In this document: positions 4,625-64,000 of the stretch, piece by piece | Position numbering within the stretch: position 1 is the first letter of the stretch | Layout: the number at the start of each line of letters is the position of its first letter | Assembly: GCA_022225965.2 (NCBI GenBank) | Contig: JAKJXP020000001.1 | Coordinates: forward strand, 1,444,984-1,508,983 | DNA from: Diatrype stigma | Taxonomy: Eukaryota; Ascomycota; Sordariomycetes; Xylariales; Diatrypaceae | Length of the DNA stretch: 64,000 nucleotides | Reading direction: 5' to 3' | Position numbers and translations under genes: made by a program | Notes under the pieces: generated by a model | What the model was told of the DNA's origin: nothing | Seen by the model: the letters and a program-made list of their open reading frames with translations, nothing else | The model's database searches: none

Positions 4625-7600
4625 ATGTCATACCGCCCACACCCATTGCGTCAGTCCTACACTGTTGACTACGCCGCGATCAACCGAAACCCGTCGACTG
4701 CTTCGTCCGCCTCCTCGGGATATTCCTTCAATTCGAACGGCTCCGACGCATGTGATAGCACTCACTCGTCAACGTCTATAACATCGAATGAGTCAGCTGC
4801 ACTGGCTTTCCGACACAAGCGTGGCATGAGTGAAACTGCGCTGCGCCATCAGGCGACACCTCGGTCTACTAAACACGACGAACCCAAGGCCACTCCGGAG
4901 AGCATGTACAGTTTGGCCAGACAATCGTTGAGGCCTCTGCCACCAGCTCCCGCCTCCAGCTCACCTCAGCCATCTCCCACCAAGACCTCGCCGCGAACAT
5001 CCCCTACTAAGACCTCGCCGCGGACATCACCATCCCCTCGCTATGATACCCGCCAAGAGCGTGGGAAAAGCTTTGATATGGGCAGGCTTTCCCTGTACGA
5101 CGGGAGCACAACACCAACATCAACCCCGAAGGGCCGACCTCTGCCGCCGCCTCCACCAGATGGCCAGCCGGCATTATCCCCGTCTCCCCCCCGCTACCGA
5201 CATGAGCGTGGCCAAAGTTTGGATGTCACCGGCGGTTCGCCCGAGCGACGGCAGCGACCTCCACCGACTCCGTTGTCAAGATCCACAGCCGCCGCCCGTC
5301 CTACTTCTATGGTCCTAACCCGATCCGACACAGTATTACCACCGGGTTCATCAAATCACACGTTGGCTTCTCCTGGGGCTATGGTGCCGCATTCTCATTC
5401 GCATTCGCACTCGCATTCCGCCTCCTTCGTCGCCCCTGATTTACAGGAACTGGGACGCTCTTCCACAAGCCAGCTCCGAACCCTCTCCTCACTGGCTCAG
5501 GGCGCGTCGGCGGATGAGTTCGCCATCACGACTCGAGCTCAAGAAGTGGTCGGTTTGCGTGGGCGGCGAAGGCTACAAAGGGTAGGCAACGCGGACAGTT
5601 TAAGAAGAAGTGACCGATATGGCTTTGAGGGGCGGAATTGGATGGACAAACAACGGCAGTTCCTACAGGCTTATGAGTATCTTTGCCACATCGGTGAAGC
5701 CAAGGAGTGGATCGAAGACGTTATTCATCAAGATATTCCACCCATTGTTGAACTAGAGGAGGCCCTGAGAGATGGCGTGACACTTGCCGAAGTGGTCAAA
5801 GCCCTCAATCCCGACCGGCGGTTTCGAATTTTCCGGCACGAACGACTCCATGCCCGACATTGGGACAACGTTGCCATCTTCTTCCGATATCTAGACGAGG
5901 TCGAGCTTCCAGATTTGTTCCGGTTCGAGTTGATCGACCTCTACGAAAAGAAGAACATACCCAAGGTCATCTATTGCATTCATGCCCTGAGTTGGCTATT
6001 GTTCAGGAAAGGGATCGTTGATTTCAGGATAGGTAACCTCGTTGGACAACTGGAATTCGAGCACCATGAACTTGAGGCCATGCAAAAGGGCCTGGATAAG
6101 CTCGGCGTTAGTATGCCTAGCTTTGGGAACATGGGCGCCGATTTTGGGGTAGAACCTCCAACCCCTGAACCAGAAGAGACCGAGGAGGAGCGCATTGATC
6201 GAGAACTATCCGAGAACGAGGCTATGATACTGGATCTACAAACCCAGATCCGAGGAGCTATGCTTCGAATACAACTAGCGAATATCATGCAACACCTTTG
6301 GGACACAGAAGGGTTCCTTATCGATCTCCAATCTAGGATACGAGGTGACTGGAGTCGCCAGATAGTAGACTACCGTCTAGAGATGCGGAAGTTCGCCATC
6401 AATCTTCAGAGTGCCGCGCGGGGTTTCCTGGCTCGAAGGCGGATGCTGCGTAGAGAGCAGTTCTGGAAGAGCAAGGAAGATGAAATCCTCAAGTTACAGA
6501 GCCTGATACGGGCCACGAAAGTTCGCGATGAGATACGAGAGACGAAATCGGAGTTGCGACAAGCGGCCGGTCCCATACGACACATCCAGGCAGCGTTCAG
6601 AGGCTACTTGGCACGAAAGGAGGTCGTGAGCCAGCAGAAAGAGACGAGTCTCATGACCAAGCCTGTAATCGGGCTGCAGTCCGCGATCCGAGGAATGCTA
6701 GCGAGAGGGAAAGTAGAGGATGAGATTGTCCTCCTCCAAGAGCAAACTCCAGCCATCACCAACTTGCAGGCTGTCGCGAGGGCCATGTTGACTAGGAACC
6801 ATGTCCTCCAGGAGCAAAAAGCGCTACATGCATCTGGCCCTCAGTGGCAAGCCATTCAAGCCTTCGCAAAGGCCATGTTGACCAGGAATGTCGTCCTTGA
6901 GCAACAAAAGGCACTGAATGCATTCGGCCCCCAGTGGCAAGCCATCCAAGCTTCTGCGAAGGCGATGCTGACGAGGAATGCCATTCTTGAGCAACAACAG
7001 GCACTAGATGCATTTACCCCCCAATGGAAAGCTATCCAGGCCGCCGCAAGGGCGATGCTTACCAGAAACGTTATCCTCGAGCAGCAAGAAGCCCTGCAAG
7101 CATTTGGTCCACAATGGCAAGCTATCCAGGCCATGGGCCGTGGAAAATTGCGCCGACAAGAAGTACAGGCAACCAAGGTCGAACTTTCACAACACAGCCC
7201 GGAGCTAGGTGCTCTGCAAGCGCATATCCGTGCGGCAGCGGTTCGCCGCGAGATTGCCGACAAGTTAGACGCTCTAAGCAGTCACGAGGAGTTCATTTTG
7301 GACCTTCAATCGTTCGCCCGGGGAATGTTGGAGCGCCAACGGGTAGCAACTGAGCTAGATGCTCTAGAGTCCGAAGAGGAACAAATCACGGATCTTCAGG
7401 CATGCATTCGTGGTCTTCTGTCTAGGATACAGCACTCTGCCTTACTTGATGAGCTGGCTTCCCATGAAGATGAGATTATCGCCTTACAATCCGTTGCGAG
7501 AGCTATGCTTCACCGCGCCCATCTTAGCGAGCTATTAGCCGAGCTTGACGAAACTGAGGAAGAAGTCGTGGAACTGCAATCTTGGGCTAGAGGTTTCATC

Positions 7601-11740: not shown

Positions 11741-14700
11741 CTAGCTCTCGTCCTCTTCCTTGATCTCCACCTGAATCTCCGGTTCGAGCGGCTGCACGCC
11801 GTACCAGTAGTCGAAGTCGCCGAGCTTCCAGGCCTCGTCGCGGCGCGGGGGCGTGGGCCTCCAGCGGGCGGCCATGCCATCGTAGAAGATCCAGACGACG
11901 AAGACTCTGCTGGTGTGGCCGGTAGGGAGCGGGTGGATGAAGGGCGTCCTGGGGGCCTGCGAGTCGATGATGCCGAGCGTGAAGTCCCGTTCGTACATGT
12001 CCTGGCCCCACTCCCACAGGGCGCCGGCCATGTGGTCGGCGAAGAACCGGGGCCCGACGTACGACATATCGACCTGGCCCTTGTGCTTGCGCACCTCGAG
12101 CCAGTCGTTGGCGTGGAGCCGCTGGTAGTTCTTGAAAATCTTCGTGAAAGCCAGCAGGTCCGGGGTGGCCAGGTGCGGGTACTGCTTCTCGAAGCTGGCC
12201 TGGATGGCCCAGATGGCGCGGGGCAGGCCCGGGTCCGGCGGGCTCACGATCGTCTTGGTGACGACCTTCCCGCTCGCGTCCTGGGTCGTGGTCTTCTGCA
12301 GCGTTGGGAGCGGCACTGGCTCCCAGCCGTTGGGGAAGGCCCCCTGCAGATTCTTGGTTTGGTCCCGGAGCGCGAGGGCGATCTCCCATGGGTCCGGGGG
12401 GTGCGGCCGCCGGAAATACCGGAGGTCTTTGTTGAAGTCGTGGCCGCTGTCAGGCCGGGTGTCTATGGGTTCGGGGCCACGCGGCCGCTTGGCCGGGCCC
12501 TTCTTCACGAAGTCGACGGGCAACCGGCGCTTCAGCGGATTGCTTCGCACGATGGTCTTCTCCTGGCCCTCCGGCAGGAGCGGGATCTGCACCGGCTTCT
12601 TGTGCGTGATCTCCCAGAGCTTCTTCTTCAGCCAATCGCCCCAGGGCACTTTGTCCGGCGGGTAGATCGCTGTTTGTTGTGACAGTGACATGCCAAGGTT
12701 AGTGAGATGCGTCTCCAAGTAAAGACAGATGTGGTGTAGCTGGTCCTGATGAACAGGGAGGGGGTGCGGGAAGGGGGTCTTGGAAAAGGGGAGGGGACAA
12801 CGGTCAACTTACCATTCTCCAGCTGCTGGCTGATAACCAGTTGCTGCAGGAGTGTGTCACCCATGGGATACACGGCCGGCCCAGGAATCCAATCCTGCCC
12901 CTGTCGGGTTATGGGCTGTAGACCGTGTCTCCCCGTATTTCTACCCTTGGATCCCCCGGCGGAATGGTCAGAGGTATTGCCTCCGTTACCACCGTTACCG
13001 CCATTGTTGTTGTTATCGTTGTTGGTGTCTTTGCCGCCATTGTTTCCGCCGTTGTTGTTGTTTCCGCCGTTGTTGTTGTTTCCACCGTTGTTGTTCTTTC
13101 CGCCGTTGTTGTTGTTTCCGCCGTTGTTGTTGTTTCCGTTGTTCTTGTTGTTTCCACCGCCATTGTTTCCGCCGCCATTGTTTCCGCCGCCATTGTTCCC
13201 GTCGTTCTTATCAGACTTCCCCGGGTCAGCCTGCGTTAGCGTTTGGCCAGGCTGCGTTTGCGTTTGGCCAGGCTGCGTTTGCGTTTGGCCAGGCTGCGTT
13301 TGCGTTTGGCCAGGCTGCGTTTGCGTTTGGCCAGGCTGCGTTTGCGTTTGGCCAGGCTGCGTTTGCGTTTGGCTGGGTTGTTTATTCTTCAAGGTCGAGT
13401 CGGTGATTGCAGCAGCGTTCTTTCCGGTATTGTAGTACGGGTCCCACGTGCCGATGTTTCTGCGGGGGGGCACGCCCCAGATCTTCCACATCGCAGTCAC
13501 CGCTTCGGCTTCTGTCGGGTCAATGACCGGCGACAGTTCCTCGATGCGGGGGCTGCTTCCCAACGGGGTGCTTCCCGACAGGGGGGTGGTGTTTCCCTGG
13601 TCACGGGACATGATGGCGCTTTGATCTATCCTCGCAGTAAGGATGCCCGTGATCTGGTTGCGAGGGTCTATCCTGAGTCTCTCGTCTTGCCGATTCTTGA
13701 TCAAGAGTTGTCGCTCAGGGCTCTGTTGGTGAAGCGGCCAGCGCCTCAGGTCGAAGAAGTTCCTGCGGGTATAAGGGGCCTGGTACCTTCTTTGTGCTGC
13801 CGTGGCCCAAGACCACAGGTTGGCGCGCGTGAGACCTTGAAAGGGTGTCTGAGACTTATCTCTGAATGCGGTCAGACGCCCTGGGTAAAACATGTTTCGG
13901 TTTTGGACGCAATCGTCTATAAGACCCTGCTTGAGGAGAACAAAGGGATCTGGATGTTCTTCCGCACTTGCGGACTTCAGTACCTGATTCGGATCTGCTT
14001 TGTCCAGGACATCCTGAATACTCGGAGTGTCTACGTGTACCTTGGCCTCGTTGCCATCGGCCGACCTGTTGTTGAATGTCTCACCCGCGTCGACCATTGT
14101 CGCCCAGTAGTCCATTTCCCTAACCGCGTAATCCGCGGAAATAGGCGGCATTGCCTGAAGCCTCTGCCGGAGCTTGTTGTAATACTGGATCGAGGTGCCC
14201 ATGCGGAATGCCAGGCCTCTGAGGTATTGGCAGGTTTCCTCGGCGGTTCCCTGGTACTCGTCATTTAGCACCCATTGCCAAACCTGCTCCCAACCAGCCA
14301 GGTCACCAATGGAGGGCTGAGGCTCGGTCTCCCTATATGCTCCTTGCACATAGTGGCTTTCTGGGACCCAGAGGTTGGCAAGGTCTTTTTGTTGCTTGTT
14401 TGTAGATTGAGCGCTTGGCTTCGTAGTCTTCTGTGAGTCATCTTCGTCGAGGGCCATGATCCTCTCTAGACTCAGGCCACGCGCCAATTTTCTGTGTTCG
14501 AGAATCCCGGCGTAGTTACGTGGGTCCTTTGGTTCATGCTTGAAGCCCTTGTCCTTGTAGGCTTCCGTAATGTGCCACAAGAAGTAATTTTTGTTAAGTT
14601 CGTTGGCTCGTGCAAACGCTTGGTTATGTGCATGACGCCAGAGGATGCGGTCTTCAGGGTATAAGTTAAACACTGGCGGTGCGACTCTGGTGAGTGTCCT

Positions 14701-45206: not shown

Positions 45207-47263
45207 TTAGAAAGGCCATAATTTACTTCCCAAAGTAACAACCTTTCTAGGCGCCCATGTTGCTACGCGGTATACCACATGTATGGTATTTATAGTAACA
45301 TGACCGATGCCGGTAACAACATCTCCTGCAGCTCCTCGTGGATCTGACATGCCCTTCTTCAGTGTCCCGAAAAACCAGTTGATGTCTGTGATGGTGTCGT
45401 TGATCATTCCAGAAATAGGGGCAGCTCTCTTGTTGGGTGGTTGGCGCACCTCGGGCCGAGAGCCTGGGAACTTGGCCGGGCCTCTCTGTTTCCCCTCGAA
45501 GTCTTTCAAGGTAAGGAACTGGTTCTCATGGTTCCTGCTGCGGACACTATCCTTGGTCAGTTTATTGCGAAAACTGTCTCGGCCTTCTGCCGAATTCTCC
45601 TCCCACCATCTCTTGACCGTGTCGAACATATATCGCTGAATGTTGGTTTTCTTCTTAGGAAAAGCCGGGTGGTGCATGATCTTCAGGATTTCGTTGATCG
45701 TCTTTTCTGCGTTCCGTCTTGGGTCGTCCCAGCAGTCGACCACTTGTTGCGTGACCCAGTTCGTTATGACTGTTGCGACGAGGCCTGCCGGTCGGTTAAG
45801 CACGTTGCTGAAGTGGTCTTTGGAAAGATCTGAGTGACTTGGGTCTGATGCTTCCCCCTCTTCATAAATTTCAGCCGATTGAGACTTGGCCGCCTCTTCA
45901 TCCACGCGGTCTTTCGCAGCTTTGAGGGCGTTGCGCAGCTCCTTGACTGATGATTCTACCATGACAGCGAGGTATTTGTAGACAAGTTGGTTCAAGTAGT
46001 CCCCAAGTTTGTTGCCCGATCCTCCAGGCCTCTGTTCTTCTGAGTCTTCCTCGCCTTCTTGCAGCCATTTCGAGACTCTGTCGTGGAAATAAAACATCGG
46101 TTCAATAGTCTGCCAAACGGATTGTGCGTCGATTGAATCCCCAGGTACATCCTCTGTTAACTCTTTGGCTTTCAGGAAGATTAAACGGACTGACTCTAGC
46201 TGCTGTGAGAGTGGGTTGTTGCCCTCAGTAGAGGCCTTGCTCACTGTTTCGATAGCAGTTTTTACCATCTCGAACAGTTGCTCGAAAGCCATTCCTCCGA
46301 AGTTGAGTTTCTATTTATCGTAAGCTTCGTCGGTCAGACTCGGAAACATTTTCATATGCTTACATCCTCTAGTTCACCCAGTGACCCTTTGGATTGCAAC
46401 ACTGCCATGTCGTCCGCTTCGCCTAATAAGCTGTGGAAGATGTCGAGCATGCCAAACGTGCCGGTGACGATCGGTGGTACCTTTCTTGCTTTCCCGTGCG
46501 GGACCTTGATTCTACAGGCATCCCCGACGAAAGCGAAGACATCGTGTTCACCCAACTCGTGCAGGCAGAGTTCCGTGAAATTGCTGTGTGCAGCAAAATC
46601 CTCGAGCGTATGAAGAGCGGCGCCCAGGCGTATGAAAGATTCTTTGCAGGCACTCGATTGGTTCTTCTGCCGTCCCTTCCGCCCCAATTCAATACACGAT
46701 CTGAGCTGGTCCCGTACATAATCGGCAGAAGTCGCCCATCCATGACTGGAATTGGCTATATAGTTCTTCATTCCCGTCTTAAGGTCAATCTCCAACTCTT
46801 TCGGGTCGACCGGCCCTCTCAGGCGAGTATCGATATCCTTCGCATTATCCTGGTATCCTCTGGGATTGTCGATGTGCTCTACATGTGTGTAGCAGCCAAG
46901 GCGCTCCGTAGTGACCTCAAACTCGTCCGTGGCGAACCCAAATTCCAAGAAGCCCATGACCGAGACGATGGCCCGTAAGACTGGCTCAGGGACATTGTCG
47001 AGGCACGTGGTGTCTATGACCTGGGAGAAATCCCGCAACCAGTTGCCAAAGTAGATCTGTTTGCGCTGCAGCTTCGTGAACCTGTGGTTCGTGACAAAGC
47101 TCGATGGCAGGTACCGAAGCACCTCAATTATGTCGCCATGACGCCAAACAAAGCCGTTGAAGTCGCTGTTCGGCGGCACTTCACCAGCTCCGAACGCAGA
47201 TGCGGGGCCGATGAACAAGATGCATATGATCAGCAACACCAAGAGTAAGGAAGCCTGAGACAT
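45207..47263 (-). CDS. HET-C domain protein (heterokaryon-incompatibility C family)
   Basis: Two exons, 46364-47263 and 45207-46310, join in phase 0 (donor GTAAGC, acceptor AATAG) to 667 residues. A signal peptide or signal anchor (LLLVLLIICILFIGPASAFG) is followed by the HET-C hallmark FGAGEVPP and WRHGDIIEVL. Next come KLQRKQIYFGNWLRDFSQVI, RLGCYTHVEHIDNPRGY and ALHTLEDFAAHSNFTELCL, where the His/Asp-rich block resembles a metal-binding helix pair. The C-terminal 350 residues are helical and charged and end in a short hydrophobic tail (YRVATWAPRKVVTLGSKLWPF). Neurospora het-c is longer and ends Gly-rich; that tail is absent here. Neurospora HET-C acts in non-self recognition; many homologues have no proven role. 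Whether this copy is an allorecognition locus is unknown. Confidence 0.9.
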
Positions 47264-57666: not shown

Positions 57667-59073
57667 TCACCGCATCATCTTTTTCATCTTCATCCCCAGC
57701 TTGAGCAAGTTCAACTTCGATGCACGAGCAGCGGCTCGAGGGGCCCTCTTCTCCGGAGTACTAGCCGCAGTAGTATTGCTATTTGCCGTCGTATTCCAGT
57801 GGCTCAACACATCCTGGATCAAGGTCGAGTTGCCAAACAGGCCATCTATGAGGTCTGTGAAGGAGGCCTTGTTGCTGCCGGTGAAGCTGTTGATCAGGTC
57901 GCTGCCGAGCTTCATCACGGGCACCATGGAAGTCACCCGCCGCTTGTTGAGCACGGCCTCGACGAAGCGGATGCGCTCGCCGTTGACGATGGTGGCGTTG
58001 CCCGTCGCGTCGATCTGGATGTTGCCGCTGCTCAGCGCGTCGGCCTGCGCGGCGAGGATGGTCCCGAAGTTCTGCACGAGCGCGCCGAAAAAGAGCTCGC
58101 CGTTGAAGTACCGCGAGTTGTTGCCCGGCGGGATGTAGACGTCGTAGATGGTGATCAGACCGATCCGGACGTCGCCCGACATGAGGTTGAGCTTGATGTC
58201 GCCGAGGCCGAGGGCGAGAGCGCCCCAGTTCGGCAGGTTGAGCGTCCCTTGTATGTTCGTACCGTTAGCTTCCGGGGGCATGATAAGCTGCAGGGTTTCA
58301 ATGCCGAAGCCCTGCAACTTATTGAGCGAGTTAACCGTGACTGTCTTCTCGATGTGGGCACCGTAGTGCAGCCCGGACAGATGCACCGTCGAGTCGCCGC
58401 GGGTAGATAAGTCTACTGTTGGATTGTCGAACACGTTTTCGAACCACTTGATCAGCTCGGTCTCGTTGGTTATTGTGACGGTCTGGTCCTGAACGACAAT
58501 GTCGGTATCTCCATCTACATGCAACTGTGGCAGAGTAACATTGACGAAGGGGTCGAATGCATCCCCGTCCTTGTTGTAGAGAAACAACGTTGTGGGATCA
58601 ATATCTGCCGGCAAGGGCGTGTCTAGAGCCGTGTCAAGAGAGATTTTCAGTTGGGTGGCCGACAAGGTTATCAGGGAGCCGCTGTTCACCGGCATCGGTT
58701 GCTTGTCAATTATGTGCTGCACAATGGCTGGGAGAATCACCAGGAACCTGACATTCATTAGTTTCGTGTATTCATTTGCCTTGGAGTTGCGCGCTTACAG
58801 AATTGGCAGGGCAATGGCTAGAATGATGACCGCCCCTATCAAGTACCACAACCAAAACTTCAAGTAGTGCTGCCGCACCTTCTGCCTCTTGGTGAGAGGG
58901 ATAGCAGCCGGCGCCTTCTCCTGAACGTTGTCGGCGCCCGAAGACGCATCGTTGCTACCCCGTCCCGAGTTGTCTGTCGCTGCTGGGGCATCGTCGCCTC
59001 TACCCCCGTGTATAGAGCCCGGGGGAGTAGTGTGTTCGTAATGGGAATTGTCCTGAAAGGTCGACGACGCCAT
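57667..59073 (-). CDS. Single-pass membrane protein with DUF3712 (AsmA-like) domain
   Basis: Two exons, 58799-59073 and 57667-58747, join in frame (donor GTAAGC, branch AACTAATG, acceptor TCAG) to 451 residues. A disordered cytosolic N-terminus of about 70 residues is followed by KFWLWYLIGAVIILAIALPI and LFLVILPAIVQHII, one membrane helix that is split by the intron. The extracytosolic part carries the DUF3712 pattern: SATQLKISLDTALDTPLPA, DIVVQDQTVTITNETEL, GFGIETLQLIMPPEANGTNI and GTLNLPNWGALALGLGDIKL. Many NxT/NxS sites fit a lumenal location. The basic tail LKLGMKMKKMMR is unusual. Members are common fungal vacuolar or cell-surface proteins of unknown biochemical role. Confidence 0.9.
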
Positions 59074-60904: not shown

Positions 60905-63900
60905 ATGCTGTTCTCCAAGCTCCTCATCGCCGCTTTGGCGCCAGTCGGCCTTTTCGCTGACAGCGCGCCCCGGACGGCCTCAACACCAGAGCTGGATCTT
61001 GACGCGCTCCTCGCAAAGCACAATCTTGCACTGGTTCCTCGGTCTGATCTCACAGAGGCCTTGACTGAGCTCAATGGATTACTCAGGGCAAGTCAAGCCC
61101 AGAAACGGAACGCGCCCTTATACCCGCGGCAGAGTAACAATAGCACCGGCAACTCTGGCTCTGGCAATTCTGGCTCTGGAAACTCTGGTACAAGCGGTTC
61201 TGGTTCGGATTCAGGCGGTCTCGACCTTGGTGACCTTTCTGGGCTTGGTGACCTGGGCGACGTTTTAGACAGCCTGGGTAAAATCGTAACACAACTTGGC
61301 GACCTCGGGGACTATCTCAAGGCGGCCCAAGAGCTGCTAAGCTCCGAGTTCCTGCAAGCTCTACATGATGCCATGGTCTATCTCGCCGACACGCTTCGGC
61401 CGCCCATCCCAAATATCACCCGGAATATTCTCACCAAGACGGAGCCAATAATCGAGCTGCTCTCTTCCCTAGATCTGAAGAGCATCATAGATAAGGTCAA
61501 CGACATTGACATAGGAGGTATCCTAGACGCGTTATCTCCGCTATTAACACCCGACTCGATCAAGAACGTTGTGGCTCTGCTGAACAATGCTGGCAAACTC
61601 CTGACGTCAGATACGGTTGACTCCCTCAAGACCCTGCTTGATAGTCTCAAGGACCTCGATCTCCAGGGCCTACTTGATGCGTTGGCCCCTCTCCTGAAGC
61701 CCGATGCAATCAAGAATATCGTTTCTTTATTGAACAACGCTGGGGACCTCCTGACGTCGGATACGGTCGACTCGCTGAAGACCCTACTCTCTAGTGCGCA
61801 GCCACTGCTTGATGGTCTTAAGGACATCGACCTCCAAGGCATAATCGACGCTTTGGGGCCTCTGCTAAAACCAGAGGCAGTCAAAACCATCGTATCTTTA
61901 TTGAACAACGCTGGAGACCTCTTGACATCGGATACGGTCGATTCCCTGAAGTCACTACTCTCTAGCGCACAGCCTCTCCTGGACGGTCTGAAAGATATCG
62001 ACTTGAAGGGAATAGTCGATGCTTTGTCACCATTACTCAAGCCTGACTCAGTCAAGGGTATTGTGAGCCTACTGGATAATGCTGAAGATCTCCTTACGGC
62101 GGATACTGTCAAGTCTCTTAAATCTTTGCTGTCCAGTGCGCAGCCACTCATCGACAGCCTCAAAGACATCGATCTACAAGATATTCTTGATGCTTTGTCG
62201 CCGCTGCTGACAGCCGACTCCGTCAAGGGCATAGTTGGGCTGCTTGGAAATGCCGAGTCGCTACTTACGAAGGATTTCGTGGACGAGACGCAAACCCTGA
62301 TCTCTGGAGCAGCACCGCTCCTCGACAAACTAAAGAAGCTTGACCTGGAGAGTCTGATAGACCAAATCACACCAATCCTCAACGAGGTTGGGAAGCTTGA
62401 CCTCGAAGGCCTGTTCAAGGCCCTTAGCCCGCTGCTTACAGAGGATTCTGTCAAAGGAATCGAAGGTCTCCTGAACAATGCCGAGGATCTCTTGACTCAT
62501 GACTTTGTGGATCAAACGAAGGACTTGATATCAGGAGCAGGACCTTTACTCTCTAGTCTAAAGGATGTCGATCTGCAAGGCCTACTCGACCAGGTCGGCC
62601 CATTACTCAACAGTCTGGGCAAGATAGATCTTCCAGGCCTTGTTGATGCTGTCAAGCCGCTACTGACAACTGATTCGGTAAAAGGGCTCGTCGGGCTCTT
62701 GGACAATGCCGAGGATCTCTTGACTCACGATTTCGTGAGCCAGACGAAAGATTTAATATCTGGGGCAGGACCTTTGCTTTCCAGCCTGAAGGATGTGGAT
62801 CTACAAGGCCTACTCGACCAGGTTGGCCCGTTGCTTAACAGTCTGGGCAAAATCGACCTTCCAGGTCTCCTGGATGCTGTCAAGCCACTCCTAACGACTG
62901 ATTCGGTAAAGGGTATCGTCGGGCTCTTAGACAATGCCGAGGATCTCTTGACTCACGACTTCGTGAGCCAAACGAAGGACTTGATATCTGGGGCAGGACC
63001 TTTGCTTTCTAGCCTGAAGGATGTGGACCTACAAGGCCTACTTGACCAGGTTGGCCCGTTACTTAACAGCCTGGGCAAGATCGACCTTCCAGGCCTCCTT
63101 GATGCTGTCAAGCCACTCCTGACGACTGACTCGGTGAAGGGTATCGTCGGACTCTTGGACAATGCGGAGGACCTATTGACCACTAAGTTCGTCAACCAAA
63201 CCCAAACGCTGGTAGGCGGAGCTGTCCCCTTGATATCAGCTGTCGGCAAGATTGACGTCGAGGGCCTTGTCGATCAGGTGAAGCCACTTCTGGATTCCCT
63301 AAGTGACATCGATGTGGCTAGCCTTATAGATAAAGTCAAGCCTCTGTTAGACTCCTTGGGAGAGATCGATCTGGGCAGCCTCATTGACCAAGTCAAGCCT
63401 ATTCTCAACTCTCTTGGGAAGATCGATCTAGCTGGCCTTATTGACAAGATCCAACCCATCCTAGATGCGGTGGGTAAGATCGACATTGTCGGGTTGATTA
63501 AACAGATCACGCCAATCCTTAACTCGCTGGACGACATTGACTTGGAGGGCATCTTCGACTCCGTCTCCCCGCTATTGACACCCAAGTCTATCGACGGGAT
63601 TACTGGGCTCCTCGGCAATGCCGAGCTTCTCCTCACACGCGACTTCGTCAATGAGACTCACACTATCATCGACGGCGCCGCGCCCTTGGTCGGAGCCTTG
63701 AAAGGGGTTGACATTGCAGGCCTTCTTGATCAAGCCAAGCCACTTCTCAAGTCGCTTGGCGAACTCGATCTGACCAGCCTCATCAATGCCGTCAAGCCGC
63801 TCCTCAGTGCCCTTGGTAACATTGACATCGAGGGAATAGTGGACCAGATCGAGCCTCTGATCTCGCCAGAGTCTGTGAAAGGCATAATAACACTGATGGA

Positions 63901-64000
63901 AAATGCCAAGGACCTTCTCAGCGCTACTTTCGTGTCGCAGACAACAGAGCTGATAGGCGACGCCACACCGGTAAGTTCCACTTCCTTCCCCATTCCTTCT
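60905..64000 (+). CDS. Secreted giant protein of tandem 19-residue leucine-rich units (partial, first exon)
   Basis: An uninterrupted reading frame of 1,022 codons runs from ATG 60905 to 63970, where CACCG is followed by donor GTAAGT; the gene continues past the window. A signal peptide covers about 1-18 (MLFSKLLIAALAPVGLFA). A Kex2-like Lys-Arg lies at 67-68 (QAQKR), and a Ser/Gly/Asn linker occupies 78-106. From about 107 the sequence is Leu/Asp-rich, and from residue 262 to 1,021 it is 40 consecutive units of exactly 19 residues, mostly starting P-(L/I)-(L/I/V). Three classes are seen: A (PLLNSLGKIDLPGLLDAVK), B (PLLTTDSVKGIVGLLDNAE) and C (DLLTHDFVSQTKDLISGAG). There are no cysteines in the array. 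The pattern predicts short amphipathic helices stacked as a solenoid or a surface-active coat. I do not recognise any named family; function unknown. Confidence 0.93.
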   Translation, partial: MLFSKLLIAALAPVGLFADSAPRTASTPELDLDALLAKHNLALVPRSDLTEALTELNGLLRASQAQKRNAPLYPRQSNNSTGNSGSGNSGSGNSGTSGSGSDSGGLDLGDLSGLGDLGDVLDSLGKIVTQLGDLGDYLKAAQELLSSEFLQALHDAMVYLADTLRPPIPNITRNILTKTEPIIELLSSLDLKSIIDKVNDIDIGGILDALSPLLTPDSIKNVVALLNNAGKLLTSDTVDSLKTLLDSLKDLDLQGLLDALAPLLKPDAIKNIVSLLNNAGDLLTSDTVDSLKTLLSSAQPLLDGLKDIDLQGIIDALGPLLKPEAVKTIVSLLNNAGDLLTSDTVDSLKSLLSSAQPLLDGLKDIDLKGIVDALSPLLKPDSVKGIVSLLDNAEDLLTADTVKSLKSLLSSAQPLIDSLKDIDLQDILDALSPLLTADSVKGIVGLLGNAESLLTKDFVDETQTLISGAAPLLDKLKKLDLESLIDQITPILNEVGKLDLEGLFKALSPLLTEDSVKGIEGLLNNAEDLLTHDFVDQTKDLISGAGPLLSSLKDVDLQGLLDQVGPLLNSLGKIDLPGLVDAVKPLLTTDSVKGLVGLLDNAEDLLTHDFVSQTKDLISGAGPLLSSLKDVDLQGLLDQVGPLLNSLGKIDLPGLLDAVKPLLTTDSVKGIVGLLDNAEDLLTHDFVSQTKDLISGAGPLLSSLKDVDLQGLLDQVGPLLNSLGKIDLPGLLDAVKPLLTTDSVKGIVGLLDNAEDLLTTKFVNQTQTLVGGAVPLISAVGKIDVEGLVDQVKPLLDSLSDIDVASLIDKVKPLLDSLGEIDLGSLIDQVKPILNSLGKIDLAGLIDKIQPILDAVGKIDIVGLIKQITPILNSLDDIDLEGIFDSVSPLLTPKSIDGITGLLGNAELLLTRDFVNETHTIIDGAAPLVGALKGVDIAGLLDQAKPLLKSLGELDLTSLINAVKPLLSALGNIDIEGIVDQIEPLISPESVKGIITLMENAKDLLSATFVSQTTELIGDATPVSSTSFPIPS
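61688..63967 (+). repeat. Array of 40 coding repeats of 57 bp (19 residues), no indels
   Basis: Every unit boundary falls at 61688 + 57n. Class order by unit is BCA BCA BCA BCAA BCAA BCAA BCAA BC, then six A units, BC, three A units and BC. Consensus positions 2, 3, 6, 9, 11, 14, 15 and 18 of class A are hydrophobic. A shorter, slightly shrunken copy precedes the array (about 61545-61687), where a unit has lost seven codons. Confidence 0.95.

What the first reader, a model, noticed from the sequence alone, without database searches (positions are those of the whole stretch)
60905..64000. Undescribed-looking secreted solenoid: at least 40 uninterrupted 19-residue repeats
From residue 262 to the end of the exon every repeat is exactly 19 residues with no indel in 2,280 bp. 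The composition is Leu/Asp/Gly/Pro with no cysteine, behind a signal peptide, a Kex2-like site and a Ser/Gly linker. TPR, HEAT, PPR and LRR units have other lengths (34, about 39, 35, 20-29) and different signatures. Two 19-mers would make a 38-residue helical hairpin, so this could be a new alpha-solenoid. It could also be an amphipathic surface coat on hyphae. The frame continues beyond the window through a GTAAGT intron.
Basis: partly seen in the sequence, partly recalled or inferred. Interest (0 to 1): 0.9.

Follow-up and report, generated by a model that had tools for sequence, protein, structure and literature searches.

The report
Fungal secreted 19-residue helical repeat protein
A fungal gene encodes a secreted-looking protein built from more than 40 copies of a 19-amino-acid helix-and-turn unit that matches no catalogued repeat family but has unnamed relatives in other moulds, so it looks like a real, undescribed structural protein family whose fold and job are still unknown.

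Summary
The frame at 60905-63970 encodes 1022 residues. Residues 245-1022 are 41 consecutive units in strict 19-residue register (the last cut at 18); identity at lag 19 is 0.33 against 0.105 in shuffles. Between copies, third codon positions change three to four times as often as second, so the protein is under selection. It is the only match found in its genome, whose contig ends inside the gene; the 3' end was not found.

It is not an orphan. Hypothetical proteins of Fusarium fujikuroi, Cordyceps militaris and Penicillium capsulatum, and one metagenome protein, share the unit, mostly at spacings of 19 or a multiple. Super-periods of 38, 57 and 76 residues occur, so the module is a single helix plus turn, not an obligate 38-residue hairpin. 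In the two closest relatives the pro-region is the best conserved part. No Pfam, NCBIfam or PDB match was significant.

The alpha-solenoid reading is neither proved nor refuted: both AlphaFold2 models have low confidence (pLDDT 36 and 46). Most likely this is a secreted structural protein, an acidic, nearly Arg-free rod or surface layer of amphipathic helices: a new family of a known general kind.

The parts
60905..60967 (+). putative signal peptide (residues 1-21)
   Evidence: by eye; 13 of 21 identical in P0003, 4 in P0004, 3 in P0002, 6 in P0005; no predictor run
60968..61129 (+). putative pro-region (residues 22-75) with the conserved motif LAKHNLALVPRSDLTEALTEL and basic sites KR (67-68) and PR (74-75)
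   Evidence: residues 28-62: 26 of 35 identical in P0003, 24 of 35 in P0004, 11 of 35 in P0002, 2 of 35 in P0005; one match found in the genome; processing inferred
61130..61219 (+). Ser/Gly/Asn linker (residues 76-105)
   Evidence: sequence; tandem repeat row 61148-61188
61331..61474 (+). capping region of degenerate units (residues 143-190), with a Tyr, which the array lacks
   Evidence: 25 of 48 identical in P0003, 23 of 48 in P0004, 18 of 48 in P0002, 8 of 48 in P0005; cap role inferred
61475..61636 (+). first repeats (residues 191-244), including a 12-residue b unit (233-244) that is 7 residues short
   Evidence: a 12-residue gap also in P0003
61637..63970 (+). uninterrupted array of 41 units of 19 residues (residues 245-1022, last unit 18), order c abc abc abc abcc abcc abcc abcc abcccccc abccc ab
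   Evidence: types a, b and c assigned by eye
62663..63118 (+). two near-identical 76-residue abcc blocks (residues 587-662 and 663-738)
   Evidence: 19 nucleotide differences, 18 at third codon positions, 1 amino-acid difference; TRF period 228 at 62468-63180
63971..63976 (+). candidate 5' splice site GTAAGT where the repeat pattern stops, 30 bases before the contig end
   Evidence: sequence; contig end; not shown to be used

Best explanation
A fungal gene, apparently single-copy, encodes a secreted, probably pro-protein-processed, all-helical tandem-repeat protein. Its module is one 19-residue amphipathic helix plus turn, in three types: a = LTxDSVKGIVGLLDNAEDL, b = LTxDFVxQTKDLISGAGPL, c = LxSLGKIDLxGLLDxVxPL. 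The modules pack in series behind an N-terminal cap into a long acidic rod or superhelix, or a layer made of such rods, that acts as a structural or coating protein outside the hypha. Shown: the repeat, coding constraint, relatives in other moulds, strong amphipathicity if helical. Predicted at low confidence: helices. Inferred: secretion, processing, cap, packing, place and role.
For: Register, and shuffles far below it. Differences between same-type units at codon positions 1/2/3: a 0.31/0.16/0.63, b 0.44/0.23/0.68, c 0.48/0.19/0.67. Median dN/dS 0.19 (a, 17 of 45 pairs), 0.25 (b, 12 of 36) and 0.32 (c, 96 of 210); the other pairs were dropped for dS outside 0.05-3 or not computable. Relatives P0002-P0005, E 1.1e-131 to 9.9e-27, 4 of 7992 scored candidates. 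A profile made from this array hits 4 of 4 relatives and 0 of 1000 shuffled sequences at E 10. Non-zero gaps between recognised units are 19 or a multiple in P0003 (4 of 5, the other 12 = 19-7), P0004 (3 of 3), P0005 (3 of 4, the other 26 = 19+7) and P0002 (6 of 10); steps of 7 are two helical turns. Hydrophobic moment of the proposed helices 0.47-0.63, shuffled 0.20-0.28. One helix per unit in the better model, low confidence. A cap as in other folded repeat domains (recalled) is conserved in two to three of four relatives.
Against: AlphaFold2 gave no confident fold: pLDDT 35.7, pTM 0.24 on the whole exon with a 5-row alignment; pLDDT 46.3, pTM 0.26 on residues 587-738 with 9 rows. No expression, secretome or localisation data. 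The C-terminal part is missing, so a GPI or wall anchor cannot be looked for. P0002 keeps the register poorly (4 of 10 gaps not multiples of 19), perhaps through a faulty gene model. P0005 lacks the pro-motif and its cap is only 8 of 48 identical.
Confidence: 0.5

Rival explanations
1. An interface-active amphipathic protein rather than a solenoid: each 19-mer is a separate surface-seeking helix and the protein spreads on hydrophobic surfaces, air-water boundaries or hyphal and spore surfaces, doing the work of a hydrophobin or HsbA without cysteines.
For: Very amphipathic units (moment up to 0.63, mean hydrophobicity 0.66-0.71 for c helices); free unit order and super-periods of 2, 3 or 4 units, as expected if units do not depend on fixed neighbours; simple composition, no Trp, Tyr or Cys and 1 Arg in the 778-residue array; no confident compact fold.
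Against: Net charge -63 in 778 residues, unlike lipid-binding helices, which usually carry interfacial Lys/Arg (recalled); a cap conserved in the closest relatives and exact spacing suggest ordered packing. Not HsbA: PF12296 matches two other places in this genome and is not among the matches for this protein.
Confidence: 0.27
2. One reading: a two-layer alpha-solenoid of 38-residue hairpins, HEAT-like, binding a partner along its groove.
For: P0005 repeats every 38 residues (identity 0.50 at lag 38, 0.21 at lag 57) and residues 435-776 here every 76. 12 of 17 weak PDB profile matches are labelled alphaRep or HEAT, best E 0.019, over 13-14 residues each. Sub-threshold solenoid matches: SYCP2 armadillo-like E 0.09 for this protein, Adaptin_N E 0.004 for P0002 and HEAT_RRP12_N E 0.07 for P0005.
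Against: Lag 57, an odd number of helices, dominates in P0003 (0.66; 0.56 at 114), P0004 (0.66; 0.60) and residues 245-453 here (0.81; 0.71), so helix types do not keep to one layer. c units of equal and unequal parity are nearly equally alike (0.535 over 100 pairs, 0.495 over 110). No HEAT, ARM or TPR family reaches its Pfam cut-off or appears for 26 two-unit pieces. Models not confident.
Confidence: 0.17
3. Not a functional protein: a decaying or untranscribed repeat.
For: No RNA evidence; the contig breaks inside the gene.
Against: Over 3 kb open without a stop; substitutions concentrated at third positions, 18 of 19 between the most alike blocks; relatives in three named genera.
Confidence: 0.03

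Closest known systems
CCM_07087 (Cordyceps militaris, P0004), CEK25_007815 (Fusarium fujikuroi, P0002), N7492_001098 (Penicillium capsulatum, P0005), hypothetical proteins
   Same: same 19-residue unit; pro-motif clear in Cordyceps, weak in Fusarium; cap region 23, 18 and 8 of 48 identical
   Different: super-period 57 (Cordyceps), mixed (Fusarium) and 38 (Penicillium); Penicillium lacks the pro-motif; none has a Pfam match over its cut-off or a function name
HEAT-type alpha-solenoids (alphaRep, adaptins)
   Same: Leu-rich amphipathic helices; sub-threshold matches
   Different: one-helix 19-residue unit without parity, nearly no Arg, secreted-looking; no match over a cut-off
HsbA / fungal hydrophobic-surface-binding proteins (PF12296)
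   Same: secreted, helical, amphipathic (recalled)
   Different: not repetitive (recalled); matched at two other places in this genome; no match here
Exchangeable apolipoproteins and perilipins (11/22-residue amphipathic repeats; recalled)
   Same: tandem amphipathic helices in simple composition
   Different: unit of 19, acidic, almost no Arg, conserved Pro in 21 of 21 c units, secreted-looking fungal protein

Membership tests
HEAT / ARM / TPR / PPR alpha-solenoid families | match to a family profile over its cut-off | tested here: not met
   best were sub-threshold: SYCP2 armadillo-like 13.1 bits, cut-off 27.8; Adaptin_N 16.1, cut-off 37, for P0002 and HEAT_RRP12_N 12.8, cut-off 27, for P0005; none listed for 26 two-unit pieces
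HEAT / ARM / TPR / PPR alpha-solenoid families | unit of two or three helices, about 31-47 residues (recalled) | tested here: not met
   unit is 19 residues; super-periods 38, 57, 76
alpha-solenoid in general | regular packed superhelix of alpha helices | tested here: inconclusive
   models helical but pLDDT 36 and 46; Foldseek nothing below E 0.59
Leucine-rich repeat (LRR) | family profile match | tested here: not met
   no LRR family listed
HsbA (PF12296) | profile match | tested here: not met
   not listed for this protein up to E 1; family present elsewhere in the genome
Hydrophobins | eight-cysteine pattern (recalled) | tested here: not met
   no Cys in 1022 residues
secreted surface or coat protein | export and surface location shown by experiment | not testable with these tools
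   signal peptide and basic sites by eye only
unnamed family of P0002-P0005 | 19-residue units of the same consensus | tested here: met
   profile from this array scores 4 of 4, E 9.1e-19 or better in a set of 5 proteins and 1000 shuffles

The most novel reading that the evidence does not exclude
A new class of extracellular helical-repeat protein whose module is a single 19-residue helix and turn that can be strung in free order (super-periods of 2, 3 or 4 units, runs of up to six c units), giving a rod or superhelix with no fixed hairpin pairing, kept nearly free of Arg, Trp, Tyr and Cys, perhaps to survive the Golgi proteases, and forming a hyphal surface layer.
Probability: 0.25. Interest if true: 0.75.

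Novelty: new variant of a known kind. Interest (0 to 1): 0.48.

Why it matters
Repeat proteins with a single-helix module and free helix order would be unusual, and useful for design, since most natural alpha-solenoids use two- or three-helix units (recalled; of the review PMC11514114 I saw the listing and passages). A large secreted-looking protein shared by moulds of different habits (recalled: insect pathogen, plant pathogen, saprophyte) but missing from the family libraries searched is a tractable gap in what is known of fungal surfaces.

Tried and rejected
Prokaryote or virus origin: 7 pattern matches in viral contigs and 72 in genome contigs, none confirmed by tblastn. Paralogs or 3' exons in the same genome: five protein queries (the whole exon, P0002, P0004, P0005, residues 815-1022) matched only this locus, and so did the pro-region; the tool scores only its best candidates, so this is not proof. 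Reading on past the contig end: no such stretch. Family and structure libraries by sequence: Pfam 0 of 8 and, for the four homologs, 0 of 18 listed matches over the cut-off; NCBIfam 0 of 6; PDB none up to E 1, best E 0.23 with profile A2 and 0.019 with profile A6; 26 two-unit pieces against Pfam, best E 0.0075, PAH. Results against 'no relative' that I discount: PHROGs E 3.7e-07 to a phage tail family, 4e-06 and 0.002 to two unknown ones, and three between 0.0025 and 0.0051 for P0005, all with 0 stretches passing on their own; NAF E 5.4e-05 and USH1C_N E 1.7e-04 for P0004 and CoV_NSP7 E 3.3e-04 for P0003, below their cut-offs. I take them for composition of Leu-rich repeats; that was not tested. 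The protein search with residues 22-260 returned only P0003, and with residues 26-69 nothing, not even P0003, so that null says little. Foldseek was run on the low-confidence model although its matches mean little. Ice nucleation was considered because a listing turned up PMC9501429 (listing and passages seen): the passages say nothing of such a repeat. Species identification through a GH7 cellulase gave no clear genus. Papers: nine searches, listings seen, passages of two papers read: no description of this repeat seen in the open-licence library; one search listed 10 of 381 papers; subscription journals were not covered.

Full report
The feature. The window is the end of contig 1 of a 49-Mb, 224-contig assembly; Het-C and multi-exon GH7 matches suggest a filamentous ascomycete, by recalled distribution. 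The frame from ATG 60905 runs open to the contig end. Up to a GTAAGT at 63971 it gives 1022 residues: a signal-like start, a 54-residue pro-region, a Ser/Gly/Asn linker, a capping region and the array.

The array. From residue 245 to 1022 there are 41 units of 19 residues (the last cut at 18) without an indel. Lag-19 identity is 0.333; 2000 shuffles gave a mean of 0.105 and a maximum of 0.142. Typing units by eye gives three kinds. In this array a is always followed by b, and the ab pairs are separated by one to six c units: c abc abc abc abcc abcc abcc abcc abcccccc abccc ab. A 12-residue b unit at 233-244 breaks the register once, by 7 residues, that is two helical turns; P0003 has the same 12-residue gap.

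Selection. Same-type units differ three to four times as often at third as at second codon positions, with median dN/dS of 0.19-0.32 on the pairs that could be scored (17 of 45, 12 of 36, 96 of 210). The most alike 76-residue blocks differ at 19 bases, 18 of them third positions. This is a protein under constraint, not a DNA satellite.

Relatives. The protein database returned four relatives among 7992 scored candidates: Fusarium fujikuroi, Cordyceps militaris, Penicillium capsulatum and a metagenome protein, with no precomputed Pfam domain. A profile of 38 two-unit rows from this array scores 4 of 4 of them and 0 of 1000 shuffled sequences. The unit spacing is largely kept: non-zero gaps are 19 or a multiple in 4 of 5 (P0003), 3 of 3 (P0004), 3 of 4 (P0005) and 6 of 10 (P0002) cases, and 30 shuffles of each protein gave at most one recognised unit. 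The position matrix came from P0001, so its own parse is circular. Next to the cap (25 and 23 of 48), the pro-region is the best conserved part in the two closest relatives: 26 of 35 and 24 of 35 identical in P0003 and P0004, but 11 of 35 in P0002 and 2 of 35 in P0005.

What the super-periods say. The arrays repeat every 57 residues in P0003 and P0004 and in residues 245-453 here, every 76 in residues 435-776 here, and every 38 in P0005. In the 57-type arrays identity at 57 is higher than at 114. In a solenoid of antiparallel hairpins a three-helix period would put each helix type alternately in either layer. So either every type fits both layers, or the structure is not built of hairpins. This counts against the simple 38-residue-hairpin model without excluding it.

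Chemistry. Proposed helices have mean hydrophobic moments of 0.47-0.63 against 0.20-0.28 when shuffled. In 1808 repeat residues of four proteins (P0002 not counted) there are about 3 Arg, 0 Trp, 1 Tyr and 1 Cys (Arg fractions converted; the P0003 segment reaches its likely frame-shifted end). The array here has net charge -63. Lack of Arg inside the array, with basic sites before it, would protect it from Kex2-like cleavage; that is my inference.

Structure. The full exon with a 5-row alignment gave pLDDT 35.7, pTM 0.24. Residues 587-738 with 9 rows in register gave 46.3, pTM 0.26, with eight helices, one per unit. Foldseek on the second model found nothing below E 0.59, as expected for a poor model. 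A profile of 26 two-unit rows against PDB sequences gave 17 weak matches, best E 0.019; 12 of 17 are labelled alphaRep or HEAT, over 13-14 residues each, and since alphaReps are close copies of one design they count as little more than one match. Helices are likely; the fold is open.

Verdict. Real, coding, shared by three named mould genera, without a significant match in Pfam, NCBIfam or the PDB as searched, and not seen in nine searches of an open-licence library (listings). A new family of secreted-looking helical tandem-repeat protein; a new fold is not shown.

Noticed in passing
57667-58758 (-): Neighbour frame upstream with a DUF3712 domain (E 1.1e-26), divergently oriented; no known link.
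   Followed up: partly
45207-47263 (-): Two adjacent frames match the two parts of a Het-C heterokaryon incompatibility protein, probably one gene with an intron.
   Followed up: partly
13040-13373: Neighbouring tandem repeats of 18, 15 and 21 bases, all multiples of three, maybe a low-complexity coding stretch.
   Followed up: no
6774-7132: Four copies of a 90-base tandem repeat, 76% matches; a multiple of three, maybe a 30-residue protein repeat.
   Followed up: no
L042 (G000:C152:43732-44079): An HsbA-family match inside an open frame of 822 residues, long for that family (recalled).
   Followed up: no
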